NCBI GenBank assembly: GCA_016284515.1
Contig: JAEEOY010000274.1
Location: forward strand, 78,738-112,693
Reading direction: 5' to 3'
Length of the DNA stretch: 33,956 nt
From: Kiritimatiellia bacterium
Lineage (GTDB): Bacteria > Verrucomicrobiota > Kiritimatiellia > RFP12 > UBA1067
Shown piece after piece: positions 2,648 through 23,332 of this stretch. Position 1 is the first letter of the stretch. Each line of letters opens with the position of its first letter. The notes beneath the pieces were generated by a model. That model saw nothing but the letters and a program-made list of their open reading frames with translations. It made no database searches and was not told where the DNA came from. A program made the position numbers and the translations under genes.

Positions 2648-2733
2648 AGTACCTCCTTTGTTTGCCGCTATTATATCATATTTTACCGTTGTAACAAGTG
2701 AAGTCAGCGCAAAAATTTTCGTGAAAATCGCGC
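2527..2733 (-). repeat. Duplicated promoter + signal-peptide cassette, copy 1 (partner 5880-6091)
   Basis: About 206 bp, from the 26-bp motif through the promoter, ribosome site and first ~40 codons, matches 5880-6091 with about nine differences by hand count. Outside the block the similarity falls: upstream it ends at the motif edge, and downstream the two proteins diverge to ordinary paralogue level. Confidence 0.8.
2670..2733 (-). promoter_or_regulatory. Promoter A of LamG copy 1, with conserved 26-bp upstream motif
   Basis: The -10 is TATAAT (2670-2675) with TTGTTA 16 bp upstream as a -35. The 26-bp motif occupies 2708-2733, exactly 32 bp upstream of the -10. Read in the transcribed direction it has GCGCG at its positions 1-5, TTTCACG at 8-14 and TTTTGCG at 20-26. 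The same motif and spacing recur at three other promoters in the window. Confidence 0.75.
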
Positions 2734-2789
2734 AATGCCGCGCTGCACGCCAACTCACCCGGGAATCAGCGACAGGTTTATCCCATGCC

Positions 2790-5700
2790 TCACCGCACAA
2801 TGAACAGCATGCCGAAGGGCATGACTTTCGCGACGAGTTCGGCATCCGTAGTGGCAACGACCTTTATCCTGTACCTGTCATCTGCCGTATACTCCGGCGT
2901 CACTGCCCAGCCAGACACCCCGGCTCCGTCAACCGTTCCGAACGAGCCAAGTATGTATGTCCCCGGCTGAACAATGCCGTCCTTGAAGGAAAGATTGAAA
3001 ACACCTTCATCCGCAAGTTTCAGCGTCGCACTGCCGATGTCGAACGCCTCGGCGACAGTTCCGTTGACGCAGTCGATCGTGAAATCAAGGGACTCCTGCG
3101 AAAACTCGAGCGTTCCAGTGAAGTTGTCAAACTGCGGCACCCCCTTCGGTTCTGCGGCAGTCACTGTTCCTGCGCCGCTTACAGTCGCGCCCGTCCAGTC
3201 AACATATCCTGACGGAAGCGTGTCAAGCCACTTTTTCATAAGATACGCCTCAACTCCGCCGCGCGTGTCAGCATCTAGCACTTCGTTGAAAAGCACTATT
3301 TCACCAAGAACCTCAAACGCCTTGTCGGAACCTGCGTCCCAGAATCCGAATACTCCTGCGTTGAAGTCGTTTCCATCAGTAGTGAACGAGAAGAGCTCCG
3401 GCGCGCCGGTGAAACCGGTTTTCGTTCCATCGACCGCGATGCCGTTGATCCTCGTTTCGCCGTTCGTCAGAACTTCCGACGTTCCGCTGCCCCAAATCGG
3501 CGAGGCATAATTCGTATACGAGGCACGCGCCCTGACCGCTGTCGTGTTGTCCGGTTTGCCGGCGTCTATGACGGGAAGTCCGCCGCCGTAGCAGCTGTCC
3601 ATCATTATAAACACCGTCCTCACCTTCTGTTTTATAATGTCGCCATTGTCGGATATCGCCTTGGTATGGTCGGTCTTGATGCGCAGATTGTTTCCCTTCT
3701 GCGTCTTGCCTGCCGGATCTGCATTAAGATCCATCCATCCACGGACAGGCTGTCCAAAGCTTCTGGAGGAACGAACATAGGTGGGGCGTCGGTCGTTGTT
3801 GTCGTCACGATAATACCCGTGGAGATATGGCGTGCCAGCGACTGACTTGTTTCCGTGATCGAAAAGCGCATGGACCATGTTGTCTGTACTGCCGAATTCA
3901 ATGTCTTCCTCACAGTCAGGGTCAAAGCGTGCGACTTTGCTCGTCATGGCGTCGACCTCGGATTCTGTAAGAATATTCTTGCTTGCGGGGATTGCAAGAG
4001 TCGCCCCCGCCGCGACAGTGACGTCTCCTGCGAAAACGCCGTCAGCTTCCACCGATCCTTCCACTGACAGCCTACCTGCCCCGTGCGGCGCGAGAGAAGA
4101 CGAATCAAGCGTCTCGAAAACGCCGCCTTCAGCAACCACAAGCGATTTCGGTCGGGAACAAACCACGCTTTCATAGTTGCTGTAATTAGATTCAAGCCCC
4201 CACTTGCGCGCCAGATTCACTTCAGCGACTGTGCGCTGCACCGCCGTAAGCTCGTTCGTGAAGATTAGTATTTCGCCATAGCGCTGCCCGCCGGCACCTC
4301 CTTCGTTGTGATTGTATAAGATAGACATTCCAAGCGAGCGAAGGGAAGGATCGTCATCACCAGGTTTAACCCCTAACGAGATGACCTGATACCCGCCGCT
4401 CAGTTTAGCAACCGTGGGGTTCACGCTCGCTCCGTCCATCCAGACAGGTATTCCCGCATTTCTCAATACACTGTCATCGATTGTCGTTCCTCGGTAGTAG
4501 TACCTTGATTGCTGACTCCGCTCCATCATACCATCATATTTCATGTCGTCGTAGTTGTTTCCCAATCCGCCTATCAGCGCCGAGCCTCCGCCATCTTGCG
4601 AACCATATACCATGACAACAGATTTCGCGGTGATCGGTTTGTTGAAAACAAGACGGCGCCGCTCGTCATGTCCATTTCCAGATGCCTGGCCGTTCTTGTT
4701 AATTGCGTCCTGTGCACCAGTCACATTCCCCCCGCACGTGCCAAACGACATCACTGTCAATCCGTTCAGCTGGTTTGTCATGGTATAGGGCATTACCCTG
4801 ATAAAGCCACCATCATCGTCGTTGCCAGTCGACGCACGGGCATTAGCGGCATAGTAACGGTCCGAACCTCCGCGAACGTCATTCCAACGGCGGACCACGA
4901 TTCCGGGGAATGTGCCCTCGGGAACCGTGTGGCCGTTGTACGTGTACTCCTGAAAGGTCGTCTCGTCCGAAGCATCGAGCCAGAGCGCCGGAAGATTGCC
5001 GAATACCGACTTGAGGTCTCCGTTGAACACGCTCGTCAGCCTTCCTGTGCTCTCGACCCGAACATCTATCCCGGAAGAAATCGTGGCGTACTGCACAGAA
5101 CCCGATACAACGATCGTTCCCGCTCCTTCAATGACACCTACAATACCAGACTCAAGACAGACAGTTACTCCACCCTCAATCGTAAGCGAATCGATCATAT
5201 GTACTATAGGCAACGCGAACGTCGCCGATACGTCTGACTCGGCAATCTTGCGGACAATTACATTCACGCCGCCTGCATTGGACGCATTGGAGACCTCCAG
5301 TTCCACCGCAGAATCCTTGGCACCTCCCGTGAATCCTGCACCCGAACCCTTGTTCGTATAAAACTTCCCTTCTACATTATCCCACAGACCGCAGATACCT
5401 TTGTCGTCCATGCAAGGGATGAAGTTGCGCTTCGGCGTGTCACCTTCTCTTATCGCCATTGAATAAAGACGCATTGGCTGATGGAGGTCCGGCGAGGACG
5501 TTCCAGACGTATATTTGTTTTGGCAGAATATATATATAGGCGCATTTACTATGGTCGTGCCGGAAGATAGTGTCTTCTTTACTGGATTCTCTCCGGCACG
5601 GGTAATAGTAAAAGAACCCGACTTTAATTCGACCTGATAATCGCCGACTTGAACGGAGTCAACCTGTCCTTCAGATGCAGTATTGTTGCCAAACAGTCCC

Positions 5701-6005
5701 TGAAGACTTGAATTTCTTTCATAGCGAAATCTCACCGATTTGTCAGAAGCCGAATCCCCGATCACACCAAAAAACACAGCCCAGTCTACCCGACGACTTC
5801 GCACAAGTAATGAAGCGTTGATTATTGTGTCCGCATTTGGACTGTACCCCGAGTCGATCCATTGCTGGTTCACTGCGTCCGACTCGATCCAGTCGAGACG
5901 CGTGTAGTTCGCCGGCAGGTCAACGGCAAACGCCGACACAGCGGCGAACGACAACACAAACCACAGCGACTTGGCAGCCATGCGATGCAACGACTTCATG
6001 ACCAT
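2790..6005 (-). CDS. Large exported LamG-like protein, copy 2
   Basis: This 1071-residue protein is the tandem paralogue of the gene at 1-2647. The first ~27 residues (signal peptide) are almost identical in both, and the rest is clearly related but diverged. In order it shows a signal peptide, an N-terminal LamG-like module (~30-230, with TRLDWIES and QWIDSGY), a linker of beta-rich segments (~235-330), an 'LWLDASDETT' module with a second sandwich-like region (~340-600), and a repeat-like C-terminal part (~640-1071) with another 'MDSCYGGG' and 'LGEIVLFNEVL' segment. The 'EILIFTNELT' and 'EIVLFNEVL' strands look like the closing strands of two LamG repeats. No catalytic motif, transmembrane anchor, PEP-CTERM or autotransporter barrel is visible. 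It is probably secreted or surface-associated. The start is set by AGGAGG seven bases before the ATG. Confidence 0.9.
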   Translation of the reverse strand: MVMKSLHRMAAKSLWFVLSFAAVSAFAVDLPANYTRLDWIESDAVNQQWIDSGYSPNADTIINASLLVRSRRVDWAVFFGVIGDSASDKSVRFRYERNSSLQGLFGNNTASEGQVDSVQVGDYQVELKSGSFTITRAGENPVKKTLSSGTTIVNAPIYIFCQNKYTSGTSSPDLHQPMRLYSMAIREGDTPKRNFIPCMDDKGICGLWDNVEGKFYTNKGSGAGFTGGAKDSAVELEVSNASNAGGVNVIVRKIAESDVSATFALPIVHMIDSLTIEGGVTVCLESGIVGVIEGAGTIVVSGSVQYATISSGIDVRVESTGRLTSVFNGDLKSVFGNLPALWLDASDETTFQEYTYNGHTVPEGTFPGIVVRRWNDVRGGSDRYYAANARASTGNDDDGGFIRVMPYTMTNQLNGLTVMSFGTCGGNVTGAQDAINKNGQASGNGHDERRRLVFNKPITAKSVVMVYGSQDGGGSALIGGLGNNYDDMKYDGMMERSQQSRYYYRGTTIDDSVLRNAGIPVWMDGASVNPTVAKLSGGYQVISLGVKPGDDDPSLRSLGMSILYNHNEGGAGGQRYGEILIFTNELTAVQRTVAEVNLARKWGLESNYSNYESVVCSRPKSLVVAEGGVFETLDSSSLAPHGAGRLSVEGSVEADGVFAGDVTVAAGATLAIPASKNILTESEVDAMTSKVARFDPDCEEDIEFGSTDNMVHALFDHGNKSVAGTPYLHGYYRDDNNDRRPTYVRSSRSFGQPVRGWMDLNADPAGKTQKGNNLRIKTDHTKAISDNGDIIKQKVRTVFIMMDSCYGGGLPVIDAGKPDNTTAVRARASYTNYASPIWGSGTSEVLTNGETRINGIAVDGTKTGFTGAPELFSFTTDGNDFNAGVFGFWDAGSDKAFEVLGEIVLFNEVLDADTRGGVEAYLMKKWLDTLPSGYVDWTGATVSGAGTVTAAEPKGVPQFDNFTGTLEFSQESLDFTIDCVNGTVAEAFDIGSATLKLADEGVFNLSFKDGIVQPGTYILGSFGTVDGAGVSGWAVTPEYTADDRYRIKVVATTDAELVAKVMPFGMLFIVR

Positions 6006-6091
6006 AGAACCTCCTTTGTTTGTTGCAATTATATCATATTTTACCGTTGCAACAAGTGAAGTCAGCGCAAAATTTTTCGTGAAAATCGCGC
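5880..6091 (-). repeat. Duplicated promoter + signal-peptide cassette, copy 2 (partner 2527-2733)
   Basis: This is the second copy of the cassette described at 2527-2733. On its upstream side it directly abuts remnants of the GH63 coding sequence. Confidence 0.8.
6028..6091 (-). promoter_or_regulatory. Promoter B of LamG copy 2, with conserved 26-bp upstream motif
   Basis: TATAAT at 6028-6033 is preceded by TTGTTG 16 bp upstream. The 26-bp motif is at 6066-6091, again 32 bp from the -10. The region is almost identical to promoter A. The far edge of the motif coincides with the point where the broken GH63 gene loses its coding sequence. Confidence 0.75.
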
Positions 6092-7005
6092 TATCGGCGT
6101 CCTGTAGTCCTTCATGCCGAGGTAGACAAGGAAGTTCAGCGGTGCCCAGATGCGTCCGCGCCAGTAGTTGTTGTCCTTGAAGCCCCTCGCATTGCGCGCG
6201 CTCGCAGGCATAACGAACTCGCCGTAGAACTCCTCCGGATTGAAATAGTGCTCGTTTATCATGCGGTCGGCCTGCTCATTCGTCGCCGTTCCGGATAGGA
6301 GCGCGTAGAAGTTGCACGGAGAGAGGACGTCGAGAAACTGCCTTGACCCGACCCTGAAGTTGCGATAGATGCCGGTCTTCTCGTCCCACATCGTCTTAAG
6401 TCTCTCGTCGTACTCCTTCGCCCGTGCGAGAAGCTCCAGCCGGACGGCATGTATGGCATCTTAACAGGAGCCGCCGTCGTCGAGACGGTGAACCTGCGTC
6501 CGCCGCGCATTCCGAAGAGCTGATCGCCCGCGCGCCCGACGGTTCCGTCGCGCTCCCACGGATAGAATACGTCCGCTATGACAAGATGTCCGCATTTGTT
6601 CGACGGCGTCACAAGTGCAACGAGGTCTTCTCCGTCAGCCGCAGTCTCGAGGGTTAGGGCGAACTGGTTCTGCACTATCTCGACGCTCGTGTAGCGCCCG
6701 TCATCGGACCTCAGCCCCGGAATGACGCCTGTCCTTGACCTGCCGTTCTTGAGAAACTCGCGGCGGTATTCCTTTCCGTTGTGCAGCGAGACGCCGAAGT
6801 TCACCGTGAAGCCGTCCGGGAGAAAAGTGTGCGCCGTCATGCTGTTGTTGTACCACGTGTTCCATCCGCGGCAGATGCGCGTCTGGAGATCGCGGTACTG
6901 ACGCGTGCGCGTTTCGCCGAGACGCGTCGCTTCAGCCGTTCCGGCGAGCGTCAGCGCGGTGGCAAGCGCGAGAACAAATGCCGGTTTTCCGGTGCAGATG
7001 CACAT
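6062..7005 (-). pseudogene. Broken GH63-type alpha-glycosidase (internal deletion, frameshift, 3' truncation)
   Basis: The gene starts at ATG 7005 behind AAGGAGA. It encodes a signal peptide (MCICTGKPAFVLALATALTL..AEA) and the N-terminal beta-sandwich of a GH63/MGH1-like glycosidase (about residues 40-185, with GWNTWYNNSM, HTFLPDGF and REFLKNG). At about 6435-6460 the frame breaks. The next frame down encodes only the last part of the (alpha/alpha)6 barrel: LLARAKEYDERLKTMWDEKTG, then 'YWRGRIWAPLNFLVYLG'. The central barrel, perhaps 250 residues and expected to hold part of the active site, is missing. The last ~11 codons before the stop at 6062 are the conserved promoter motif of the next gene rather than GH63 sequence. 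It lies 17 bp after the beta-helix gene, as last gene of the operon. A functional enzyme is very unlikely. An assembly error is the main alternative. Confidence 0.8.
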
Positions 7006-7022: not shown

Positions 7023-9752
7023 TTATTTTTCTGCGGTTGCCTGTTTCATGATTCCGTTGATGCCGATTTTGACGTCGGCCGACGGATCGGATTCTATCGT
7101 GAGCATCTTGCGGCACTCGACGTTTGCGGCGGCGGCGCCTTTCGAGCCCGGTCCGAAGCGCATGCACGGGAGCTTGTTGTCGAGACGGATGTGGTCGCCG
7201 ACGAACGCACTCGCAAAAACGGAAAGATCGCCGCCCTTCTCCGCGGACGCCTCGTAGCAGCACCACGATATGAGCTGGTTGAACGCTACCGATCCGCCGC
7301 GGACTTCGGCGATCTTCGACGCCGGAGACCACACGTCCGCCACATCGAACACTATGCGCCCGCGAAAGCCCGGCTCCGTCACCGCATAATGTCCTCCGCC
7401 CTGGCGGAAGAATACGCCCATCGACGCGACGAGCCCTATTACCGCGTCGCTTCCCGCGCGCCCGATCACGCCGTCGCGCGCCGCGTCGAACGCGACGCCC
7501 CACATCTTGCCGCGGAACGATCCGCCCGTATACCGGTCGCGTTCCAGGACGAGCTGCTCGGCGACGTTGATGTTGAAGCAGGAGAAGAAGTCGCACTTCT
7601 TCACGTCGCCAAGGACTATTCCGCGCGTGACGCGCGACGAGAAGTCGCAGAGCCGCTCACCCTCGGTCTTGTTGCCGGGGTGGTTGGGGAATCCGCCCTG
7701 GTGCCCCCAGCCGGAGAAGTTGAAGTGCAGGTCGCGGACCGTTCCGCCCGTCGTGCCGTGTCCGATCTCGAGCGTCGTTCCGAGCGCCGCGCCCGTCACG
7801 TCCGCGATTTCGATTCCATCGCATTTCACCGTCATCGCGTCGATTGCAGTCCATGAGCCGATGAACGTGCAGTCGCGGATCCACGACTGCGCGGCGGCGC
7901 GGACGGTCGGCGGATACTTCTTGACGCGGATGCGGTCCTCGACTTCGGGGAGGTCGCTCCATCCCTGGTGCGGATAGTACACGGTGATTCCCCTCACGCC
8001 CGAGCCGCGCGATAGCGTCACGAGCGGAGCGTCGTCCGGCTTGTCCTTCCCGCCTATCGCCCAGAGCATCGTTCCGCGCATCGTCGCGTTTCCGTAGTGC
8101 GCGCCTTCGAAGGATCCGCGCAGCTCCACGCCGGGCGGAACCTTCACGCCGCCGAAGAGCTTGTACGATCCGGCCGGAACATACACCGTGCCGCCCTTCG
8201 CCGCGCCCGCCGCGTCGAGCGCCTTCTGGAACGCCGCGGTGGAGTCCTCCTTCGGAAGCTCCCTGAAAGTTCCGCGCGCCGCGCCGAAATCGGTGACGTC
8301 CCATATCTTCGACGAAGCGGGCTTCCCGTGCGGCACATGATCAAAAGCGTACTTGACCGCGGCGGGGACTGCCTTCGTCTTCTCGTCGCGGATGATGCGC
8401 GGATCATTCGACTCCCATCCACTCACGGCCGACGGTCCCTTGTACTCGTTCCCCGAAAGGACGAGCTGATCAACCTTTTCGCCCATCTCGTATGCCGCAG
8501 CCTTCGGTTCGTCGAAGCGGCAGCGCGCGACGACGATGTTTCCGGCCGCGGACCTCACTGCCGCATTCGCGTAACCAGTGAAAGTGCAGTCCTTCAGGCT
8601 GATTGCGTATGGTCCGATCTTCGCGGAGCCGACGGAGTACTTCCCGCCCCGGAGAATCGTATCCGAGACGACAAGCGATGTGTTGGACTGATACCACGGC
8701 TTCACGCCGCGCGCAATCGCCTCTGAATAGTCGGGCTTCGCCCCGAAGTATATCGGACACACCCGCGCCGAAATATCGCTTCCAGTTAGCATGAAGCACG
8801 GATATCCGGGATTCTCGAGAAACACTCCGACAGCGGCGTTGCGCATTCTCACGTTTCCCGCCGCGACGTTGCCGGTGTTGAGGAGCTTTCCGTCGTCGGA
8901 CGGGACTGCGGTTATGAGCAGGCCCTTCTGGCACCAGTCTATGTCGATATCCCACCAGTAACCCCAGTCCTGCTCACCGCACATGATTCCGACAAGGTTC
9001 TTCTGCAGGTACGTCTTTAGATTTACGAGGGACTTGCCCTTTGGAGCGCCCGGGAGTCCGCTTTCGGCCCAGTACTTCGGCGAGAGCGAGACGTGTTCGA
9101 TGCGCGGGACGTCGTATGCGTACGCGCCGTGCACGCCGAGCTTGAGCGCCGTTCCGTAGAGCCGCCTGACGAGCATGGAAGAGCAGTTGTTGTTCCAGAA
9201 GCCCGTCCAGGAGTTGTAGAGCGTGACATTGTAGACCGTGGAGTGTCCGCGTCCGCGGATCGTCGCGGGATACGGAACCGGCGCGTCGGCCTTCTGCTCG
9301 GGATACCATATCGACAGGTCGCGCAGCGTCGTCGCTCCGCGCACCGTTATGAAAGCGCCTTCGTCCGGCTTCTCCGTGCCACGCCCGGCGTACGCCATGA
9401 GGATCGTGCCCTTCCCCGCGCCGCCCTTGTCGGGGCGCATCCACTCGCCGCGGAGCGTCACGCCGTCGGGAAGCTCCAGCGTCCCTTCAACGCGGTAGCG
9501 TCCCGCGGGAAGAAACACAGTGCCGCCCTGCGCCTCGTGGCATGCCTTTATTGCGGAACTTATCGCCTCGGTCGAATCCTTCTCGCCCGTTCTGTCCGCG
9601 CCGAATTCACATGCGTCGGCCGTGTAGACGATCAGGTCGTCGGACACCATTCCCGCCGACGGCGCGGCCACGCGGGCCTGTATCTGAGGCTCGGCGAAGG
9701 CGGTTGCTGCAGAGACCGCCAGTATGCACAAAATTAATCCATCCTTACTCAT
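7023..9752 (-). CDS. Exported protein with two pectate-lyase-superfamily beta-helix modules (copy 2)
   Basis: This 909-residue protein has a clear signal peptide (LILCILAVSAATAFA) and two tandem modules of the Pectate_lyase_3 type. Module one (~40-430) starts with 'CEFGADRTGEKDSTEAISSAI' and 'GGTVFLPAGRYRVEG'. Module two (~480-870) starts with 'VTDFGAARGT..EDSTAAFQKAL' and 'GGTVYVPAGSYK'. Both continue into right-handed beta-helix-like strands. Such proteins act as polysaccharide lyases, epimerases or hydrolases on the outside of the cell. I cannot place catalytic residues, so the reaction is unknown. The start is ATG 9752, inside the end of the GH31 gene (8-bp overlap), which suggests translational coupling. 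It is a full-length paralogue of the protein at 17835-20516. Confidence 0.88.
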   Translation of the reverse strand: MSKDGLILCILAVSAATAFAEPQIQARVAAPSAGMVSDDLIVYTADACEFGADRTGEKDSTEAISSAIKACHEAQGGTVFLPAGRYRVEGTLELPDGVTLRGEWMRPDKGGAGKGTILMAYAGRGTEKPDEGAFITVRGATTLRDLSIWYPEQKADAPVPYPATIRGRGHSTVYNVTLYNSWTGFWNNNCSSMLVRRLYGTALKLGVHGAYAYDVPRIEHVSLSPKYWAESGLPGAPKGKSLVNLKTYLQKNLVGIMCGEQDWGYWWDIDIDWCQKGLLITAVPSDDGKLLNTGNVAAGNVRMRNAAVGVFLENPGYPCFMLTGSDISARVCPIYFGAKPDYSEAIARGVKPWYQSNTSLVVSDTILRGGKYSVGSAKIGPYAISLKDCTFTGYANAAVRSAAGNIVVARCRFDEPKAAAYEMGEKVDQLVLSGNEYKGPSAVSGWESNDPRIIRDEKTKAVPAAVKYAFDHVPHGKPASSKIWDVTDFGAARGTFRELPKEDSTAAFQKALDAAGAAKGGTVYVPAGSYKLFGGVKVPPGVELRGSFEGAHYGNATMRGTMLWAIGGKDKPDDAPLVTLSRGSGVRGITVYYPHQGWSDLPEVEDRIRVKKYPPTVRAAAQSWIRDCTFIGSWTAIDAMTVKCDGIEIADVTGAALGTTLEIGHGTTGGTVRDLHFNFSGWGHQGGFPNHPGNKTEGERLCDFSSRVTRGIVLGDVKKCDFFSCFNINVAEQLVLERDRYTGGSFRGKMWGVAFDAARDGVIGRAGSDAVIGLVASMGVFFRQGGGHYAVTEPGFRGRIVFDVADVWSPASKIAEVRGGSVAFNQLISWCCYEASAEKGGDLSVFASAFVGDHIRLDNKLPCMRFGPGSKGAAAANVECRKMLTIESDPSADVKIGINGIMKQATAEK

Positions 9753-12010: not shown

Positions 12011-14164
12011 TCACTCAGCCGTCATCTCGAGACGGAGCGTCTCGCCCGCGAAAAGCGCCGCATGCGGAATCGCCGTGCCCGCGAGCGGCCTGCCTCCGAT
12101 CGTCGCGGAGGCGACGTACTTCGCGTCGCGGCTCGCCTTGGGCGCGTCGACGACGAACGACTTGCCGTTCTCCTGGCGGATCGTCACCTTCGAGAACACC
12201 GGAGAGCCGAGCTGGTACTCGGGGAGGCCTGGCGTCACAGGATAGAAGCCCATCATCGAGAACACCGCGTAGGCGCACATTCCGCCGCCGTCTTCGTCTC
12301 CGCACATGCCCATCCTGTCGTTGCGGAACCACGCGTCGAGCGTCTTCCTCACGAACTTCTGCGTCTTGCGCGGCTGGCCGGCGTAGTTGTAGAGGTAAGG
12401 GATGTGGAACGAAGGCTCGTTCGCCATCGTGAACATGCCCATCATGCCCGTCGCACCGTCAGGCATCTCCGCGACGTAGTGGAAGCGGTTGCCGCAGGAA
12501 GTGTTGAGCATCTCGTCAAGTCTGCGCGCCATGCCTGCAGGCCCGCCGAGGTACTCCACAAGCTGCGGGATGTCGTGCTGCACGTCCCAGATGTACGTCC
12601 ACGCATTGTTCTCGGTGTAGTAGCTGCGCGCGCCCTTCCCGCCGCAGATTATCGGATCGAACGGCTCCACGAACGCGCCAGCGGCGTTCTTCGGACGGAA
12701 GAACTTCGTCTTCGGATCCCACAAGTTGCGGTAGAACTTCGAGCGACGTTCGTACTCCTTGACGCCGTCCGCGTCGCCTACGATCGCGGCGATCTTGGAC
12801 ATCGCCCATGCGTCATAGCTAGAGCCCTGCGTCACGGAGACCGTCTGGCGGTTCTCCCAGTTCTGGTCAACTGCCGGGCACGTCTCCTTGTCGCCCGGAT
12901 TGAGCGCCGGCATGTATCCCTTCTCGACGTAGAACCGGTCGAGCTCCGTGAGCGGGCCGCGGTACCACGGCACGAGCGACTCGGTCTTCTCCGTGTAGTC
13001 GAGGGCCTTGAACGCGGCCGCAAGGTCGAAGCCCCTCACGCCCTTCACCCAGGCGTCGTAGAACGAGATCGCCGCGTGGTGGTTGATCATGCAGTGCTGG
13101 TCGCAGTTGATCCCGGGGAACGTGGGCATCCACTTCTCCTTGTTCTCGGAGGCCATGCGGATGTAGCTCGCGAGCTTCGCCGCCTCGGCCTTCGGCTCGA
13201 GGAGCACCATGAGCGGATGGTGCGCGCGGTACGTGTCCCAGATCCAGTCGTCGGTATACTGGTCCACTCCATCGGTCTCGTGCACCTTCCCGTCCCATCC
13301 GCGGTAGCGTCCGTCTTCCGTGACGTTGACCATGCGCTCGTAGCAGCGCCAGAGAGACGAGTAGAACACCGCCTTCTCTGAATCCGTGCCGCCCTCGACT
13401 TCTATCTTCGAGAGCTTCTCGTTCCACGCCCTGCGGCCCGCGGCGGCAAGCGACTCCATGTCCCATCCCGCGATCTCACGCGCGCAGTTGCGCGCCGCCT
13501 GCTCCGCGTCGATGTAGGAGACACCGTACTTCAGCATCACGGACTTCACATCCGGCGCGAAGACAAGCGCAAAGCCGTCGTTGACGCGGCGGAGCTCCAC
13601 CGGCGCCGGACTAAACTCGCCCGCGAGCCATACGTCGCTCGCGGCGTATTTGCCGCGCCTCACGTCCTTTGCGACCACTCGCGCGCCGTCGAGCGTTACG
13701 TGCGCGTCGCGTCCCGTGAACACCACGGCGTGCAGCGCGTCCGCGCGGCGGAACTCGAACGACGCTAGCGCGCTCTGCCGCGCGGGGACGATCGAGAACT
13801 TCACGCACTCGGAGTCGAACGTCACGTCGTAGGAATACGGCGTCGAGTGGGGAGAGTCCCACGTGCCGCTCCAGCGCGCGCCGAGCCGCTCCGCGTCGCC
13901 GGAGAACGGATGCACCGCGAAGACCTGCTGCCCGCGGTGGTCGGGGGTCTGAAGGAAGATCGCGGAGACGCGGTCGTCCGTGTAGTCGCGGTACGGCGGC
14001 AGGACGCGCAGCATGGCGTTCGGCAACTGCGTCGTCTGGAAGCACGGCACAAGCATGTGGCTGATCGTGCCGATTTCGGTGTTCACCCAGTCGACGGGAT
14101 CCTTCGCCAGCGCGCCGAGCGCGACAAATACCATCGAGGACAGCGTGATGATCAACTTGTTCAT
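12011..14164 (-). CDS. GH92 exo-alpha-mannosidase, exported
   Basis: This 717-residue protein starts at ATG 14164, chosen because AGGAGAAAACC lies directly before it and a signal peptide follows (MNKLIITLSSMVFVALGALA). GH92 features appear in order. 'DWVNTEIGT' opens the mature protein. 'DDWIWDTYRAHHPL' and 'INCDQHCMINHHAA' lie near 305-370, 'MANEPSFHIPYLYNYAG' near 580, and 'GDEDGGGMCAYAVFSMMGFYPV' near 620. GH92 enzymes are calcium-dependent alpha-mannosidases that trim alpha-1,2/1,3/1,6 mannose from N-glycans or mannans. The 'DEDGG' loop differs from the more usual 'DEDNG' or 'NDDCG' by one residue, so linkage specificity is open. It follows the GH3 gene by 34 bp and precedes GH31 by 25 bp. 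Length is normal for the family. Confidence 0.93.
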   Translation of the reverse strand: MNKLIITLSSMVFVALGALAKDPVDWVNTEIGTISHMLVPCFQTTQLPNAMLRVLPPYRDYTDDRVSAIFLQTPDHRGQQVFAVHPFSGDAERLGARWSGTWDSPHSTPYSYDVTFDSECVKFSIVPARQSALASFEFRRADALHAVVFTGRDAHVTLDGARVVAKDVRRGKYAASDVWLAGEFSPAPVELRRVNDGFALVFAPDVKSVMLKYGVSYIDAEQAARNCAREIAGWDMESLAAAGRRAWNEKLSKIEVEGGTDSEKAVFYSSLWRCYERMVNVTEDGRYRGWDGKVHETDGVDQYTDDWIWDTYRAHHPLMVLLEPKAEAAKLASYIRMASENKEKWMPTFPGINCDQHCMINHHAAISFYDAWVKGVRGFDLAAAFKALDYTEKTESLVPWYRGPLTELDRFYVEKGYMPALNPGDKETCPAVDQNWENRQTVSVTQGSSYDAWAMSKIAAIVGDADGVKEYERRSKFYRNLWDPKTKFFRPKNAAGAFVEPFDPIICGGKGARSYYTENNAWTYIWDVQHDIPQLVEYLGGPAGMARRLDEMLNTSCGNRFHYVAEMPDGATGMMGMFTMANEPSFHIPYLYNYAGQPRKTQKFVRKTLDAWFRNDRMGMCGDEDGGGMCAYAVFSMMGFYPVTPGLPEYQLGSPVFSKVTIRQENGKSFVVDAPKASRDAKYVASATIGGRPLAGTAIPHAALFAGETLRLEMTAE
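13640..13657. repeat. 18-bp palindrome family, copy inside the GH92 gene
   Basis: CGCGGCGTATTTGCCGCG encodes part of 'RRGKYAASDV' in the GH92 N-terminal domain. It is the only copy inside the carbohydrate locus. Confidence 0.5.
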
Positions 14165-14198
14165 GGTTTTCTCCTGTCTTATTTGAAATGACATGACA

Positions 14199-16262
14199 TC
14201 AATAGGCAACACGCGTGGAAACCACGCCATCGTCGAAGCCCGGCTGTCCGCCGCCGGCGAAGATTTCGTATTCACCCTTCGCGAGCGACTGCTTTCCGTC
14301 CATTCCGAACTGCATAAGCTGCTCCTTCTTGAGCTTGAAGGTGACCGTCTTCGACTCGCCTGCCTTAAGCGTCACGCGCTTGAAGCCCTCGAGGTGGTGC
14401 ACCCTGCGATCACCGGAATCCTTCGGGGAGCGAACATAGAGCTGGACGACTTCATCTCCGGCGAGCGTGCCGGTATTGGTGACCTTGACCGTCGCCGTCA
14501 CGCCGTCCTTTGCCTTTACGACCTTGAGAGCCGAGTAGTCGAACGTCGTGTAGGAAAGTCCGTAGCCGAACGGAAATAGCGGCTTCTTCGTAGCATAGCG
14601 GTAGGTGCGTCCCTCCAGCGTGTAGTCCTTGATGTCCTTGAGGCCTTCGTACGATTCGGGATAGGTGATCGGGAGTCTTCCGCCTGGGTTGTTCTTGCCG
14701 AAGATCGTGCGCGCGATGGCGCGTCCGCCCTGTTCGCCCGGATACCACACGACGAGAACCGCGTCACAGATTTCATTGACTTCCTTGAGGTCGATCGGAC
14801 TTCCGCCGAAGACGACGCCGATCATGCGGCGGTCCTGTTTCTTGCGGAGGTTGCGGAGCATGCCCAGCTGCCAGTCGTTGAGGCGGCAGTCCTTCTTGTC
14901 TCGCTCCTCGCCTTCGTCTCCTGGCGTGAGGCCGATGCAGCAGATGACGGTATCGCTCGACCCCTCCTCGCCGGGGCCGCAGAGCTTGATGCCGGGCCCG
15001 AGCTCTTCTGCGACGCCGGTCATGACCGAAATCGGCTCCGAGGCGATCCCCTCGTAGTTGCCCATGAGCACAGCCTCCTCCATGCAGCGTCCCCAAATCG
15101 AGACGTCCTTGAGCTTCGACTTGTCAAGCGGAAGCACGCCGTTGTTCTTGACGAGAACGATCGACTCCTCGGCGACCTTGAGCGCGAGCGCCTTGTTCTC
15201 GCGCGTCGCGATGTCCTTTACGCCAAGGCCGTCCCACGGCGTCTTCGCGCCCCCGACGTTGCCGAGGAGAATGCGAGTGGTCAGCAGATGCACAAGCGGC
15301 TCGACGAGCTGCTCCTTCTTCACCTCGCCCTTGTCGACGGCGGGGAATAGCGCATGGTACGTTCCCTCGCTGCAGAGGTCGAGTCCGGCGTCTATCGCCG
15401 CAAGGCACGTCTTGACGCCGTCATCCGTATAATGGTGCCAGTTCTTTATATCGCCTACAGCGCCGACATCGCTTACGACGTGCCCATTGAATCCCCATTC
15501 TCCGCGGAGGATGTCCGTCAGAAGGAACTTGCTGGCGCAGCACGGCTTTCCGTTCACGGCCGAATAAGCGCCCATGACGCTTTCGACCTGACCTTCGGTG
15601 ACGAGCATCTTGAACGCGGGCAGGTAGTATTCGTACAGGTCGCGGTTGTCGAGATTGACGTTGAAACCGTGGCGCAGCTTCTCCGGCCCCGAGTGGACGG
15701 CATAGTGCTTTGCGCACGCGGCGACCTTTAGGAACTTCGGGTCGTCGCCCTGCATACCCTTAACGAACGCCGTCCCCATCACGCCGGAAAGATACGGATC
15801 CTCGCCGAACGTCTCGTGTCCGCGCCCCCACAGCGGATCGCGGAACATGTTGACGTTGGGGCTCCAGAACGTAAGCCCCTGGTAGATGTTGCGCTGCCCC
15901 TTGGCGGAGAAGACGTTGTACTTGGCGCGCCCCTCGGTTGAGATGACCTCGGCCATCCTGCGCTCAAGGTCCGCGTCGAACGTCGCCGCAGCGCCGATGG
16001 CCTGCGGAAACACCGTCGCTACGCCGCAGCGCGCCACGCCGTGAAGCGCCTCGTTCCACCAGTGGTAGTGCGGGAGCCCCACCTTGTCATTGGCCGGGGC
16101 GTCCATCATCAGCTGCCACACGCAGTCGCGTGCGGACATCTTCTCGACGATCGCCCTTGCTTCGGTCTCCGCCTCAGCGCGCCTGGCCGCTCCAGGCATC
16201 GCCATGACCTGTGCCGCTGCAAACGCCGCCACGCCCGTCATTATCATCTTTGAGGTATTCAT
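14199..16262 (-). CDS. GH3 beta-glycosidase (beta-xylosidase/beta-glucosidase type), exported
   Basis: This 687-residue protein has an N-terminal signal region (MNTSKMIMTGVAAFAAAQVMA), a GH3 TIM-barrel domain (~35-330), the GH3 C-terminal sandwich (~365-570) and a fibronectin-III-like domain (~590-680). 'HYHWWNEALHGVAR' near 66-78 is typical of the bacterial beta-xylosidase group. The nucleophile is D265 in 'GHVVSDVGAV'. 'PFGYGLSYTTF' marks the end of the second domain. It should cleave terminal beta-linked xylose or glucose from oligosaccharides. It is the first gene of the long operon and starts about 80 bp downstream of promoter C. The region just before the ATG has no strong ribosome site. 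Confidence 0.93.
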   Translation of the reverse strand: MNTSKMIMTGVAAFAAAQVMAMPGAARRAEAETEARAIVEKMSARDCVWQLMMDAPANDKVGLPHYHWWNEALHGVARCGVATVFPQAIGAAATFDADLERRMAEVISTEGRAKYNVFSAKGQRNIYQGLTFWSPNVNMFRDPLWGRGHETFGEDPYLSGVMGTAFVKGMQGDDPKFLKVAACAKHYAVHSGPEKLRHGFNVNLDNRDLYEYYLPAFKMLVTEGQVESVMGAYSAVNGKPCCASKFLLTDILRGEWGFNGHVVSDVGAVGDIKNWHHYTDDGVKTCLAAIDAGLDLCSEGTYHALFPAVDKGEVKKEQLVEPLVHLLTTRILLGNVGGAKTPWDGLGVKDIATRENKALALKVAEESIVLVKNNGVLPLDKSKLKDVSIWGRCMEEAVLMGNYEGIASEPISVMTGVAEELGPGIKLCGPGEEGSSDTVICCIGLTPGDEGEERDKKDCRLNDWQLGMLRNLRKKQDRRMIGVVFGGSPIDLKEVNEICDAVLVVWYPGEQGGRAIARTIFGKNNPGGRLPITYPESYEGLKDIKDYTLEGRTYRYATKKPLFPFGYGLSYTTFDYSALKVVKAKDGVTATVKVTNTGTLAGDEVVQLYVRSPKDSGDRRVHHLEGFKRVTLKAGESKTVTFKLKKEQLMQFGMDGKQSLAKGEYEIFAGGGQPGFDDGVVSTRVAY

Positions 16263-16343: not shown

Positions 16344-16407
16344 ATTATCTCATTTTCCACGCCGTCAAAGCGGGAATGTCACGCAAAAATTACCGTGAAA
16401 TTCGCGC
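16344..16407 (-). promoter_or_regulatory. Promoter C of the GH3-GH92-GH31 operon, with conserved 26-bp motif
   Basis: The -10 is GATAAT (16344-16349) and the 26-bp motif lies at 16382-16407, again with exactly 32 bp between. TTGACG is present, but only 13 bp before the -10, so the -35 is poor. An activator is plausible. The 5' leader to the GH3 start is about 75-80 nt. Confidence 0.7.
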
Positions 16408-16440: not shown

Positions 16441-17820
16441 TCACTCTCCGAACACGGTGAACTCGGTGATTCCCGGCACAACGCCTTCGGGCACCGCGAG
16501 GACGACGATGCGCAGCTCCTTCGCGAGTACGCGCGGCGTCTCGCGGTAGTCGACGAAGAGATCGACGGCGTTCTGTGATGCATCGACAAGCGGACGCCAC
16601 GTCTCGCCGTCCTTCCAGTCGATGCGGTAGCTGTAGGCGCCTACGTTGAAGCCCCTGCGCCCCTTCATGTCGCAGTCGCGCCAGATGAGGCGGAACGCGC
16701 GCACCATCGCGGGGAACGGAGACTTGAACTCCAGCGTCTGCGGCAGGGCGCCTTCGAGTTTGGCGTATGTCTTGAGTTTCGCGTCTGTCGTCTCGGGACG
16801 CGCGGAAGCGAACGGAAGCGTCGTCCACGGAACCGCCCCGGAACCGTCGGCGTACTGCGGCGTTTCGGTCGCCTCCTGCACGGCGATCTCTCCGTTCCTG
16901 TCGAGGACGAGCCGGTCGAATCCAATCAGGCGCTCGAATCCCCCGAGGACGCCCGAGTAGATGCAGTAGCTTACGAGATAGTCCTTGCCGTACTTCACGA
17001 CGCTGCCGTGTCCGATTCCCGTCACAAGTCCCGTGGTCTTGCGGAAAAAGGGATTGTGCTTCTGCTTGACGAACGGTCCGAGCGGACGCTTCCCCCACGC
17101 CGCACCCATCGCGTAGCGCTCGTGCTCCGTTCCGGACGAGGAGTAGGTCAGGCAGTAGCGTCCGTTGATCTTGACCATCCACGCACCCTCGATCCACGAC
17201 ATCGAGCGGTCGTGCGGCTTGCATTCCCACGACTGGGTCTCGGGCTCGAATGGAATGAGCTGGACGGGCTTTCCGATCATCTTGCAGGGATTGGACGACT
17301 CGAGCTCGACTCCCCAGATTCCGTCCTTGGGCGAGCATCCGTAGTAGAGATAGAGCCTGTCGCCGTCGGAGAAGAGGTTCATGTCCGCCGGACCCGGCAC
17401 GCCCCCCGGCCAGGGGATGTAGCCGATCTTCTTGAACGGACCTTCGGGCGACGCGGAGTCGTAGATGTCGATTCCCGCGCAGAGGAGGTAGCGTCCCTTG
17501 TGCTTTGCGATCGTCGGCGCATAGCCAATGTCTCTGACACCAATGTCTATCTTTGTCCACGTCGCGCCGCCGTCAGTCGATTTCCAGGCCATATCGTTCG
17601 ATGGATAGCAGTAGATTGTCTTTCCCTCGACGAGCAGCGACGGATCGGCAAGCTCGCGGTGCTGCCGCTTTTCCGCGAAGTCCGCGACGCCTTCTCGCGT
17701 ATTGCGGCTGATCGGGATGCCGGGCAGGGACATCGGGTTGCAGTACGTCGTCGGCCGCGCGCCCTGCGCGGCGATAGCGCCTATCATGCAGAGCGCAGAC
17801 ATCATCATCGTTTTCATCAT
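16441..17820 (-). CDS. GH43-type glycosidase with C-terminal discoidin-like domain, exported
   Basis: This 459-residue protein has a signal peptide (MMSALCMIGAIAAQGA) and a five-bladed propeller of GH43/GH-F type. The three acidic residues expected are visible: D59 in 'ELADPSLL', D146 in 'GPADMNLF' and E211 in 'SWIEGAWMVK'. Residues ~340-459 look like an F5/8-type (discoidin) carbohydrate-binding domain, with 'YSYRIDWKDGETW' and 'ITEFTVFGE'. GH43 members remove arabinose, xylose or galactose; which one is not readable here. GGAGG lies three bases before the first ATG (17820) and six before the second (17817), so the second Met may be the real start. It is 14 bp after the beta-helix gene, in the same unit, and ends 178 bp before the GH3 gene with promoter C in between. 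Confidence 0.9.
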   Translation of the reverse strand: MMKTMMMSALCMIGAIAAQGARPTTYCNPMSLPGIPISRNTREGVADFAEKRQHRELADPSLLVEGKTIYCYPSNDMAWKSTDGGATWTKIDIGVRDIGYAPTIAKHKGRYLLCAGIDIYDSASPEGPFKKIGYIPWPGGVPGPADMNLFSDGDRLYLYYGCSPKDGIWGVELESSNPCKMIGKPVQLIPFEPETQSWECKPHDRSMSWIEGAWMVKINGRYCLTYSSSGTEHERYAMGAAWGKRPLGPFVKQKHNPFFRKTTGLVTGIGHGSVVKYGKDYLVSYCIYSGVLGGFERLIGFDRLVLDRNGEIAVQEATETPQYADGSGAVPWTTLPFASARPETTDAKLKTYAKLEGALPQTLEFKSPFPAMVRAFRLIWRDCDMKGRRGFNVGAYSYRIDWKDGETWRPLVDASQNAVDLFVDYRETPRVLAKELRIVVLAVPEGVVPGITEFTVFGE

Positions 17821-17834
17821 GTTCCTCCGTCCTA

Positions 17835-20516
17835 TTAGTTCCGCTCCGGGATGGCAAAGCCGTTCACGCCAATTTTCGCCGAAGCGCCGGGATCGACGGT
17901 CATTAGAAGTCTGCTGCGGCAGTCTAGGTTGCCGACGGCCATTCCCTTCGACCCGGCCTCGAACCTAATGCAGTCGCGCTTATCGTTGTGCCCGACATGG
18001 TCGCCGACGTATGTGCTGGCGAGCATGTTCAGCTCGCCGCCCTTGCAGCACACGGCCTCGAGGTTGCACCACGAAAGCAGCTGCGAGAACGTGACGGACC
18101 CTCCGTTGACCTCGGAGATTTTTGAACTGCCGCCCCATAGGTCGGCGTTGGAGAAGACGATCCGCCCGCGGAACGCGGGGTCGGTCACGGCGTAGTGTCC
18201 GCCGCCGCGCTGGTTGAAGACGCCCATGGACGCGACTAGCCCGATCACCGCGCTGCATCCCGCGCGCCCCACGACGCCGTTGTGCGCGGCATCGAATGCG
18301 ACGCCCCACATCTTGCCGCGGAAGGACCCACCCGTGAATCTGTCACGCTCGAGGACGATCTGGTCGGAGACGAGGATGTTGAAGCACGAGAAGAAATCGA
18401 CCTTCGACACATCGCCGAGAACGAGTCCGTTGACCTCGCGGTTGGTGTACTCTACGAGTCCGTCCTTCCCGTCCACCGCCTTTGGCCTGTTCGGAAAGCG
18501 CCCCTGGTGCGTCCAGTTGGAATAGTTGAAGTGGAGGTCGCGAACGACTCCGCCCGTTGTGCCGTGACCTATTTCGAGCGTCGTCTTCATCGCAGCGCCC
18601 GTGACGTCCACGATCTCTATGTTGTCGCTCTTCTGAGTCATCGCGTCGATGGCAGTCCAGCAGCACACGATGGTGCAGTTCTGCACCCAGCAGTTCTGGG
18701 AGGTCCTAACGGTCGGCGGATACTTCTTGACGCGCGTCGCCTCGCTTGCGCCTGGACCGTCGATCCATCCCTGCTCCGGATAAAAGACCGTGAAGCCCTT
18801 GAACCCCGACCCCTTCGAGAGCGTCACGAGCGGCTGCCCGGACGGATGGTCCTTCTCTCCGTACACCCACAGCTGAGTTCCTGCGGAGGTCGAATTGCCG
18901 TAGTGCGCGCCTTCGAAGGAGCCGCGAAGCTCGACGCCTGTCGGAACCTTCAGCGCACCTTCGAGGCGGTATATCCCGGCAGGAACATACACCGTGCCGC
19001 CCTTTTCCCTCGCCGCCGCGTCAAGCGCCTTCTGAAATGCTGCGGTGGAGTCTTCACCCGGAATCGCCTCAAGCGTTCCGCGCGTCGCGCCGAAGTCGCA
19101 GACATCCCATATGCTCTTCCCCTGCGGACGACGCCTCGGCACATGATTGAAGCTGTAGGAAATGGACGGAATCGCCTTCGCCATCTTGTCCTCGCGGATG
19201 ATGCGCCTGTCGTCCTTTTCCCAGCCATTAATTTCGAGCGGACTTGAAAACGAGTTCCCCACGAGCACGAGCTGCTCCACCTTGTCCGTCAACTCGAACG
19301 CCGGCAGCTTCTTCTGCATGAAGCTGCACTTCGAGGCCGTGACGTTCCCCGTTGCGGACCGAAGCGCCGCGCGCTCGTATCCGGCAAAGGTGCAGTCCGC
19401 GACGTTAATTCCGTATGGTCCGACCTTGGCGGAAGCAATCGAATACTTTCCACCCCGGAAGGTGACTCCGGTGAAGAGCAGCGAGGATGTCCTTTGATAT
19501 GACGGCTTTATGCCCATTTCCTCGTACTTCGAGTAGTCCGGCTTGTCCGCAAAGTATACGGGGCACGTCTTCGCGGATATGTCGCCGTACGTAAGCATGA
19601 ACCCGGGATATCCTGCGTTCTCGATGAAGATGCCAACCCCCGCGTTGCGCACCTTTACATTCCCGGCGCAGATATTCCCGGGCACGACCTTCTTTACGGC
19701 ATTGTCGGGAATCGCCGTCAGGAACAACCCCTTCTGGCAGTACTCCAGGTCGAGGTCCCACCAGTAGCCCCAGTCCTGCTCGCCGCCCTGGATGCACGTA
19801 AGGTTCTTAACGAGAAACGACTTGAGCGCCGCAAGCGCCGCGCCCTTCGGCGCGCCGGGAAGTCCGCTCTCGGCCCAGTACTTCGGCGAAAACGCGACGT
19901 GTTCGATGCGGGGAATGTCGTAGGCGTATGCGCCGTGAATGCCGAGCTTGAGCGGCGTGCCGTACATCCTGCGTATCAGCATCGAGGAGCAGTCGTTGTT
20001 CCAGAAGCCCGTCCACGCATTGTAGAGCGTGACATTGAAGACGGTGCTGTGTCCGTGTCCGCGTATTGCCGCCGGATAAGGCACCGGGGCGTCGGCCTTT
20101 TGCTCCGGATACCATATGCCGACATCCCTCAGGCACGCACCGGACGAAACATCGAGAAACGCGCCCGAATCGGGCTTCTCCTCGCCGCGCCCCGAGTATG
20201 CCATGAGTATCGTCCCTCGTCCGAGTCCGCCATTGTCGGGAGAGAGCCATTCGCCGCGGAGCGTGACGCCTCCTGAAACCTTGAGACGTCCGTCGACCCT
20301 GTAGCGTCCGGCGGGAAGATACACCGTCCCGCCCTTCTCCTTAGCCGCGGCGTCGAGGGCGGACTGGATGGCGGAAGTCGAGTCCCTGCTTCCCTGCCTG
20401 TCCGCGCCGAACTCGGTCACGTCGTGGGTATACACTATAAGGTCGTCCACCGCGAGACCGGGCGAGGGCTGCGCGATGCGGACAGCCGCAAGGACGATGA
20501 ATGTTGCGCAAGTCAT
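17835..20516 (-). CDS. Exported protein with two pectate-lyase-superfamily beta-helix modules (copy 1)
   Basis: This 893-residue protein is the paralogue of the one at 7023-9752, with conserved order and many identical stretches. Module one (~25-420) contains 'VTEFGADRQGSRDSTSAI' and 'GGTVYLPAGRYRVDG'. Module two (~465-860) contains 'VCDFGATRGT..EDSTAAFQKAL' and 'GGTVYVPAGIYRLEG'. The N-terminus is hydrophobic (MTCATFIVLAAVRIA) but a weaker signal peptide than that of its paralogue. The beta-helix modules suggest action on or binding to acidic or complex polysaccharides. No specific lyase motif could be identified. AGAGGAA lies eight bases before the ATG. It heads a two-gene unit with GH43 under promoter D. 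Confidence 0.88.
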   Translation of the reverse strand: MTCATFIVLAAVRIAQPSPGLAVDDLIVYTHDVTEFGADRQGSRDSTSAIQSALDAAAKEKGGTVYLPAGRYRVDGRLKVSGGVTLRGEWLSPDNGGLGRGTILMAYSGRGEEKPDSGAFLDVSSGACLRDVGIWYPEQKADAPVPYPAAIRGHGHSTVFNVTLYNAWTGFWNNDCSSMLIRRMYGTPLKLGIHGAYAYDIPRIEHVAFSPKYWAESGLPGAPKGAALAALKSFLVKNLTCIQGGEQDWGYWWDLDLEYCQKGLFLTAIPDNAVKKVVPGNICAGNVKVRNAGVGIFIENAGYPGFMLTYGDISAKTCPVYFADKPDYSKYEEMGIKPSYQRTSSLLFTGVTFRGGKYSIASAKVGPYGINVADCTFAGYERAALRSATGNVTASKCSFMQKKLPAFELTDKVEQLVLVGNSFSSPLEINGWEKDDRRIIREDKMAKAIPSISYSFNHVPRRRPQGKSIWDVCDFGATRGTLEAIPGEDSTAAFQKALDAAAREKGGTVYVPAGIYRLEGALKVPTGVELRGSFEGAHYGNSTSAGTQLWVYGEKDHPSGQPLVTLSKGSGFKGFTVFYPEQGWIDGPGASEATRVKKYPPTVRTSQNCWVQNCTIVCCWTAIDAMTQKSDNIEIVDVTGAAMKTTLEIGHGTTGGVVRDLHFNYSNWTHQGRFPNRPKAVDGKDGLVEYTNREVNGLVLGDVSKVDFFSCFNILVSDQIVLERDRFTGGSFRGKMWGVAFDAAHNGVVGRAGCSAVIGLVASMGVFNQRGGGHYAVTDPAFRGRIVFSNADLWGGSSKISEVNGGSVTFSQLLSWCNLEAVCCKGGELNMLASTYVGDHVGHNDKRDCIRFEAGSKGMAVGNLDCRSRLLMTVDPGASAKIGVNGFAIPERN

Positions 20517-20542
20517 AGTATATTCCTCTGATTGCCGAAGAT

Positions 20543-20606
20543 ATTATACTAAATCACCGCGAACAACACGGTGAATCCAGCGCAAAATATTCCGTGAAAA
20601 ACGCGC
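20543..20606 (-). promoter_or_regulatory. Promoter D of the beta-helix/GH43 unit, with conserved 26-bp motif
   Basis: TATAAT is at 20543-20548 and the 26-bp motif at 20581-20606, with 32 bp between. No good -35 hexamer is present. The motif sits between divergent genes, about 55 bp upstream of the oxidoreductase start on the other strand, so it could affect both. Confidence 0.7.
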
Positions 20607-23326: not shown

Positions 23327-23332
23327 AAGTAA

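What the first reader, a model, noticed from the sequence alone, without database searches (positions are those of the whole stretch)
2670..20606. Four-promoter regulon: a 26-bp motif always 32 bp upstream of the -10
The motif at 2708-2733, 6066-6091, 16382-16407 and 20581-20606 has the same length and orientation every time, and 20 of its 26 positions are invariant (GCGCG at 1-5, TTTCACG at 8-14, A at 17, TTTTGCG at 20-26). The gap to the -10 is exactly 32 bp at all four promoters, including C and D, which have no good -35, and a TTC-C block is also kept inside this gap. The repeated TTTYRCG units 12 bp apart look like direct-repeat half-sites next to the polymerase, which fits an activator such as an AraC-type protein. 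All four units encode exported carbohydrate-related proteins. I know of no described regulator with this site.
Basis: partly seen in the sequence, partly recalled or inferred. Interest (0 to 1): 0.8.

Follow-up and report, generated by a model that had tools for sequence, protein, structure and literature searches.

The report
Sugar-regulator operators at polysaccharide-degradation promoters
Four promoters in this uncultured bacterium carry the same two-part docking site for one AraC-family sugar-sensing activator, whose probable gene was found elsewhere in the genome and which appears to switch on a set of exported plant-fibre enzymes.

Summary
The 26-mer is at all four stated places (0.01 expected by chance), each exactly 32 bp before a -10. 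The own genome has 11 copies (<=3 mismatches; reversed control 2), and 11 of 11 keep that spacing. The AraC guess is supported, but the half-sites were mis-drawn. The 26-mer is part of a ~38-bp operator: two 15-bp units (TGCG-N7-CACG), 23 bp apart, at -71..-57 and -48..-34, then an extended -10 and no conserved -35. The likely regulator is P0006 (contig C208), AraC-type with the XylR domain layout, divergent from its own operator. Of 161 genomes of the order, 7 hold a close orthologue (65-100%) and 7 of 7 have the operator at that spot. Beside 26 of 71 related regulators a 23-bp tandem repeat ends 21 bp before an extended -10, its sequence differing between regulators. Of 21 first target genes scanned, 13 are glycoside hydrolases or pectate-lyase-like. 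New member of a known kind; binding and activation are inferred.

The parts
2720..2733 (-). Operator A, unit 1 (GCGCGATTTTCACG), predicted -70..-57
2697..2710 (-).
2670..2678 (-). Extended -10 of promoter A (TGATATAAT); hexamer at 2670-2675
2..2647 (-). Target A: protein of 1120 aa with a signal-peptide-like start, running past the window's left end, paralogue of target B, no Pfam match for the part in the window
6078..6091 (-). Operator B, unit 1
6055..6068 (-). Operator B, unit 2
6028..6036 (-). Extended -10 of promoter B (TGATATAAT)
2790..6005 (-). Target B: 1071-aa protein with a signal-peptide-like start, no Pfam match
16394..16407 (-). Operator C, unit 1
16371..16384 (-). Operator C, unit 2 (GCGTGACATTCCCG)
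16344..16352 (-). Extended -10 of promoter C (TGAGATAAT)
14199..16262 (-). Target C, first gene: GH3 protein with a signal-peptide-like start
12011..14275 (-). GH92 gene, probably same operon as C
   Evidence: operon inferred from closeness and strand
9745..11985 (-). GH31 gene, probably same operon as C
   Evidence: operon inferred
7023..9755 (-). PF12708 pectate-lyase-like gene, probably same operon as C
   Evidence: operon inferred
20593..20606 (-). Operator D, unit 1
20570..20583 (-). Operator D, unit 2 (GCGCTGGATTCACC)
20543..20548 (-). -10 of promoter D (TATAAT); this one lacks the G of the extended -10 (ttagTATAAT)
17835..20516 (-). Target D: PF12708 pectate-lyase-like protein
16441..17820 (-). 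GH43 gene, probably same operon as D
   Evidence: operon inferred

Best explanation
The four sites are operators of one regulon. A dimer of an AraC-type activator with a LacI-like sugar-sensing domain (P0006, on contig C208 of this genome, outside the window) binds two 15-bp direct-repeat units 23 bp apart, at -71..-57 and -48..-34. Within each unit, HTH1 reads the 5' box (TGCG) and HTH2 the 3' box (TTCACG). The downstream unit covers the place of the missing -35, so the activator recruits sigma-70 polymerase to an extended -10 when a sugar released from plant polysaccharide is bound. This switches on exported glycoside hydrolases and related enzymes. Shown by sequence: the operator layout, its spacing, the divergent regulator beside its own operator in 7 of 7 orthologue-bearing genomes, and the target genes. 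Inferred: binding, activation rather than repression, which HTH reads which box, and an unknown sugar effector.
For: Spacing: 11 of 11 own-genome copies found without using the -10 have a >=5/6 hexamer exactly 32 bp on. Layout: 22 non-redundant sites show four boxes, then T(-15) 22/22, G(-14) 19/22, A(-11) 22/22, C(-1) 17/22 and A(+1) 13/22; no -35 hexamer is conserved. Regulator: P0006 has Peripla_BP_3 + HTH_18; its best solved matches, 4fe4 and 4fe7, are named 'Xylose operon regulatory protein' (that this is E. coli XylR is recalled). It is divergent from an operator in front of a GH2 gene. Co-occurrence: of 61 genomes of the genus, own included, the three motif-rich ones (11, 9 and 7 matches) are exactly the three with an orthologue of >=89%; the next is 65% (G082, which also has operators), the rest <=49%. 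Of 161 genomes of the order, 7 have a match at E <= 1e-125 and 7 of 7 carry the operator at the divergent position (G138 has the -10 one base further, G129's gene is cut by a contig end). Four of those 7 operators (G082, G129, G138, G139) were not in the training set. Related regulators: at a gap of 21 bp, 27 of 114 extended -10s flanking 71 regulators follow a tandem repeat (>=10/14) of period 23; periods 22 and 24 give 1 and 4, the other 18 periods from 15 to 35 give 0. Box/HTH association over 36 regulators: HTH1-box1 partial r 0.26 (P 0.005), HTH2-box2 0.22 (P 0.001), HTH2-box1 -0.03 (P 0.64).
Against: No binding or expression data. Two genomes carry a good operator without a close orthologue: G013 (one site at 45 bits; best match 49%) and G085 (one site at 44.5 bits; best match 38%); G013 is 82% complete, completeness of G085 is not told. 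One 26-mer match (G062) has no -10. In the Mantel tests HTH1-box2 (partial r 0.14, P 0.01) and N-terminal-domain-box2 (0.14, P 0.003) also remain, so shared ancestry is not fully removed. 45 of 71 regulators did not show a repeat at the strict threshold, and 1 of the 26 that did (L167) was read on the reverse strand. The regulon's units are also partly palindromic: 58% (unit 1) and 43% (unit 2) of positions paired against about 26% in shuffles, which would suit another kind of dimer.
Confidence: 0.83

Rival explanations
1. A CRP/FNR-like or LacI-like dimer binds an inverted repeat within each unit (CGCAAATTTCACG is a partial palindrome), with tandem dimers centred near -63 and -41.
For: In the 26 aligned sites the frame CGCAAATTTCACG pairs 58% of its positions in unit 1 and 43% in unit 2, against about 26% in shuffles (the sites are related, so the z-scores overstate). 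The centres would suit class I and class II activator positions (position classes recalled).
Against: In the same frame the units beside 32 related regulators pair only 31% and 29%, near the shuffled 23-26%, while their direct repeat stays (they were selected for the repeat), e.g. GCGCATAATCGGCG twice. The AraC-type gene lies beside the operator in 7 of 7 orthologue-bearing genomes. I did not search for CRP/FNR or LacI genes.
Confidence: 0.07
2. The operator belongs to a different AraC-type protein of the genome, and P0006 is only one of its targets or neighbours.
For: The genome has 27 HTH_18 matches, and 13 regions match P0006 at E <= 1e-40, itself included.
Against: The two other regulators of this genome among the 36 cases kept for sit beside different repeats (C89, C256); the others were not resolved. 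Motif abundance tracks the P0006 orthologue among 61 genomes. The operator beside it is kept at 65% protein identity and in a second genus.
Confidence: 0.07
3. The motif is a regulator-free promoter element (an UP-like AT-rich element) spread by duplication of promoter cassettes.
For: A and B are a recent duplication, and the AT-rich blocks lie where UP elements act (recalled).
Against: GC-rich invariant boxes; different flanks and different downstream genes at the other sites; no more than control-level matches in 56 of 61 genomes of the genus; co-occurrence with one regulator.
Confidence: 0.03

Closest known systems
MtlR / PmtlE of Pseudomonas fluorescens (PMC4514859; passages read)
   Same: AraC/XylS-type activator of a sugar gene; a binding site of at least 37 bp with two similar 15-bp blocks at -72..-58 and -50..-36, upstream of the -35. 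Here: about 38 bp, -71..-57 and -48..-34.
   Different: Period 22 there, 23 here; PmtlE has a -35 below the site, here none is conserved and the -10 is extended; one promoter was studied there, 13 operators are predicted here.
XylS / Pm of the TOL plasmid (PMC5481539; passages read)
   Same: Two homologous 15-bp direct repeats, each a 5' box A (TGCA) and a 3' box B (GGTA); recognition helices 3 and 6 contact this region. Here each unit is TGCG-N7-CACG.
   Different: Benzoate-type inducers, no LacI-like domain (domain contrast recalled), different box sequences and spacing within the unit.
E. coli XylR (PDB 4fe4, 4fe7; sequence match; the structure paper was not held, and is known to me from a citation in PMC4514859, and from memory)
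   Same: LacI-like sugar-binding domain fused to an AraC DNA-binding domain; P0006 matches over residues 102-375 (4e-28).
   Different: Distant; effector here not known; larger predicted target set (size of the E. coli set recalled).
AraC-type regulators of Caldicellulosiruptor bescii (PMC8579813; passages read)
   Same: AraC-type regulators of plant-polysaccharide genes with tandem-repeat sites upstream of mapped promoter elements, taken as activators.
   Different: Different phylum (recalled); the passages speak of local regulators of single loci and of two-component systems; XylR there is a ROK-family protein.

Membership tests
AraC/XylS family, XylR architecture (regulator P0006) | C-terminal double HTH of the AraC type | tested here: met
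   HTH_18, 55.6 bits against a cut-off of 33.6
AraC/XylS family, XylR architecture (regulator P0006) | N-terminal LacI-like periplasmic-binding-protein domain | tested here: met
   Peripla_BP_3, 92.3 bits against 26.5; best solved match 'Xylose operon regulatory protein'
AraC/XylS family, XylR architecture (regulator P0006) | Sugar effector switches DNA binding | not testable with these tools
   needs a binding assay
AraC/XylS-type activator operator | Two direct-repeat units of about 15 bp, 21-23 bp apart | tested here: met
   22 non-redundant sites; period 23 dominates beside 71 related regulators
AraC/XylS-type activator operator | Proximal unit next to or over the -35, at fixed distance from the -10 | tested here: met
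   unit 2 at -47..-34; 31 of 34 sites at exactly 32 bp from the 26-mer
AraC/XylS-type activator operator | The named regulator binds the site and activates | not testable with these tools
   only co-occurrence and position are shown
CRP/FNR- or LacI-type operator | Conserved inverted repeat | tested here: inconclusive
   partial palindrome in the regulon's units (58% and 43% paired against about 26% shuffled), near chance in units beside 32 related regulators (31% and 29%)

The most novel reading that the evidence does not exclude
This genus carries a large expanded family of XylR-like activators that dock on one rigid promoter scaffold (two units 23 bp apart, 21 bp, extended -10, no -35). Each regulator reads its own box sequences, so a genome can hold many parallel, mutually insulated sugar-sensing regulons. 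The set is a natural table for working out a DNA-recognition code for both HTHs of AraC-type proteins, e.g. RRxAE in the first recognition helix with CGCAA-like boxes against ERLAE with CGGTT, and GFENPNSLRKFF in the second with GGRAT against GYDSDSTLRY with TCACG.
Probability: 0.6. Interest if true: 0.7.

Novelty: new member of a known kind. Interest (0 to 1): 0.5.

Why it matters
It gives a candidate regulator, a precise operator and a target list for plant-polysaccharide degradation in an uncultured lineage whose public relatives are titled Verrucomicrobia, Lentisphaerae or Kiritimatiellae. Searches for a described regulon there found none (no paper held all the terms; 28 papers held two of three terms, the 15 listed had no such title; open papers only). 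The related regulators with their adjacent operators make the box-to-helix recognition of AraC-type proteins directly testable, and the rigid layout lets target genes be predicted from sequence alone.

Tried and rejected
Half-sites 12 bp apart: rejected, since with all sites aligned the repeat period is 23 and period 23 stands out beside related regulators. Motif as chance or as a general element of the genus: rejected, since outside G000, G078 and G081 the <=2-mismatch pattern gives 13 genomes with 1 match each, as many as its reversed control in total (13); real sites in G013 and G082 are among those 13. A wider species scan: 23 stretches matched exactly, holding 25 matches; 9 of the 25 have a >=5/6 hexamer with TG exactly at 32, all in the records of G078 (6) and G081 (3); four more (L214, L215, L223, L229) have a TACAAT one base earlier; one (L209) has only TAAACT; the other 11 show none. 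Records of the window's own genome may be left out of that scan. The model R1 includes the -10, so its hits are no independent test of spacing. Notebook entry 3 overstates strong R1 hits; a recount at 37 bits or more gives G000 13, G078 12, G081 6, G082 2, G013 1. Structure prediction was not run: the domain assignment was already clear. One search ranked papers without the lineage term and says nothing about it.

Left unresolved: single operators in G013 and G085 without a close orthologue.

Full report
Observation. The window holds the 26-mer GCGCGNNTTTCACGNNANNTTTTGCG at 2708-2733, 6066-6091, 16382-16407 and 20581-20606, all on the - strand, and nowhere else with up to 3 mismatches; shuffles expect 0.01. 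The -10 starts exactly 32 bp after each. In the whole genome (G000, 3.86 Mb) the same pattern with up to 3 mismatches has 11 places against 2 for the reversed control, and all 11 have a hexamer with at least 5 of 6 letters of TATAAT exactly 32 bp on. This test did not use the -10 in finding the sites. A and B stem from a recent duplication (163 of 180 bp downstream identical, 24 of 100 upstream).

What the motif is. A matrix of the 26-mer, run over 350,919 bases (stretches of G000, G081, G078, G013 and G062, and the window), gave 34 sites scoring 19.7 or more; 31 have the -10 at exactly 32, one at 31, one at 37 and one has none. None of the lower-scoring places listed (score 8 to 15.3) had more than 3 of 6 letters there. 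Leaving out the three oddly spaced sites, the other 31 reduce to 22 that are less than 80% alike. They show four boxes: TGCG at positions 0-3, TTCACG at 9-14, TTTTGCG at 20-26 and TTCaCg at 32-37. These form two units, TGCG-N7-CACG, 23 bp apart. Counted from the -10, they lie at -71..-57 and -48..-34. No -35 is conserved; instead T at -15 (22/22) and G at -14 (19/22) form an extended -10, and C at -1 and A at +1 suggest the start. In 8 of 38 sites the ATG sits exactly at the predicted +1, i.e. a predicted leaderless message (35 of these 38 have the gap of 32, and the 38 include five G082 sites found with a model that holds the -10).

The regulator. Among the HTH_18 proteins of G000, G078, G081 and G013 (27, 15, 20 and 65 matches), I found one in each of the first three directly beside a motif site: G000:C208:10128-11273 (P0006, 381 aa), G081:C14:4867-6006 (95% identical) and G078:C4:34913-36040 (89%). 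Each is divergent from an operator driving a GH2 gene (Pfam shown for the G000 copy). P0006 has Peripla_BP_3 and HTH_18 and matches the 'Xylose operon regulatory protein' best among solved structures. In 61 genomes of the genus, own included, only these three have >=89% identity; the next is G082 (65%), and all others listed are at 49% or less. The motif-rich genomes are the same three, and the operator model finds five sites below E 1e-5 in G082, one of them divergent from its orthologue. In 161 genomes of the order, 7 have a match at E <= 1e-125 (G000, G078, G081, G082 and G129, G138, G139 of another genus of the family). All 7 have the operator at the divergent position, in G138 with the -10 one base further. 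Exceptions: G013 and G085 have one good operator each but no close orthologue.

Generality. I fetched 71 regulators like P0006 with flanks (L128-L187 and L197-L207: G082's orthologue and 70 others, taken from the matches listed, mostly from the top of that list and from G000, G081 and G078; the list itself was cut). With a matrix of the 70-bp alignment, the best score in the flanks exceeded 10 in 18 of 71, against 0 of 71 for the reversed flanks (G082's orthologue is one of the 18). Asking only for an extended -10 (114 found) and any tandem repeat of 14-mers ending 21 bp before it (>=10/14), period 23 gives 27, periods 22 and 24 give 1 and 4, and the other 18 periods 0; 26 of 71 regulators have such a repeat, one of them (L167) read on the reverse strand. 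Several are close relatives with the same repeat, so the number of independent cases is smaller. Among 92 extended -10s of the large fetched loci, period 23 gives 13 (6 of 74 when strict motif sites are left out) and all other periods together 1; some of those 6 may be variant regulon sites or sites of other regulators, which I did not sort. The repeats differ between regulators while the first box stays mostly CG-rich. Of 74 regulators (the 71 and the three orthologues) 38 passed a looser score, and 36 were compared (L183 lacked its HTH, L167 was dropped): distances of HTH1 go with box 1 and of HTH2 with box 2 after the N-terminal part and the other HTH are allowed for; HTH2 does not go with box 1; but HTH1 and the N-terminal domain keep a weaker tie with box 2. 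This favours HTH1 on the 5' box and HTH2 on the 3' box. The XylS review names helices 3 and 6 and boxes A and B (PMC5481539, passages); which helix reads which box there is recalled.

Symmetry. The regulon's units are also partly palindromic (58% and 43% of positions paired against about 26% in shuffles), whereas the units beside 32 related regulators are near chance in the same frame (31% and 29%). This leaves some room for a non-AraC dimer.

Targets. Of the first genes after 38 operators (37 with a frame found), 21 were scanned with Pfam: 13 are glycoside hydrolases or pectate-lyase-like (GH2 four, GH3 three, GH43 three, PF12708 two, GH92 one), 2 carry GDSL-esterase domains, 1 is a CotH/LTD protein, and 5 have no match (A, B, L041:6097, L042:2-1897, L047:7127). 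The other 17 were not scanned; many begin like scanned ones. A GH95 gene lies further down from one site. Most first genes begin with signal-peptide-like stretches (read by eye; no predictor was run). Taken together this looks like hemicellulose and pectin breakdown; the exact polysaccharide is not established.

How it most likely works. A sugar from plant polysaccharide binds the LacI-like domain; the dimer occupies both units; the downstream protomer stands in for the -35 contact and recruits sigma-70 polymerase to the extended -10. Shown: layout, spacing, positional and phyletic linkage. Inferred: binding, activation, effector.

Known relatives. MtlR/PmtlE has 15-bp blocks at -72..-58 and -50..-36 (PMC4514859, passages), and XylS/Pm has two 15-bp repeats with boxes A and B. 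In C. bescii AraC-type regulators have tandem-repeat sites upstream of mapped promoter elements (PMC8579813, passages). So the kind is known. For the regulon, its motif and the lineage, searches of open papers showed nothing. Relatives named: MAG RUG14632 and SRR873601_bin.89 (contig lengths equal to those of G078 and G081 contigs), SRR12081301_bin.91 (genome G084, same places as G139) and RGIG4394 ('Kiritimatiellae', roe deer omasum; genome G086, same places as G129).

Noticed in passing
G000:C247 sites 56144 and 68881; G081:C14 9401, 34651; G078:C4 51445, C10 26389, C10 52101, C26 21588: At 8 of 38 operator promoters the ATG lies exactly at the predicted +1, which predicts leaderless messages.
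   Followed up: partly
window 2-2647 and 2790-6005: Two tandem paralogous proteins of over 1000 aa with signal-peptide-like starts and without any Pfam match, with duplicated promoter and N-terminus; related genes follow operators in G081 too.
   Followed up: partly
G000:C247 near 56074 (L037:15838-16074): The reading frame after this operator stops after 79 aa, while the G078 counterpart is 724 aa (GH43); a broken gene or an assembly error.
   Followed up: no
L055 (G013:C141) 1102 onwards: A good lone operator in front of a disrupted frame, in a genome without a close orthologue of the regulator.
   Followed up: partly
L172, L176, L185 (beside XylR-like genes of G000, G081, G076): A second operator family (GCGTGTTTTTTCCG / GCGCGAGTTTTCCT) directly downstream of another XylR-like gene shared by these genomes: possibly a parallel regulon.
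   Followed up: no
window 20594-23464: Beyond the regulon: a GFO/IDH/MocA oxidoreductase-like frame, a beta-ketoacyl synthase N-terminal domain and a VWA/BatA protein; no link to the motif was looked for.
   Followed up: no
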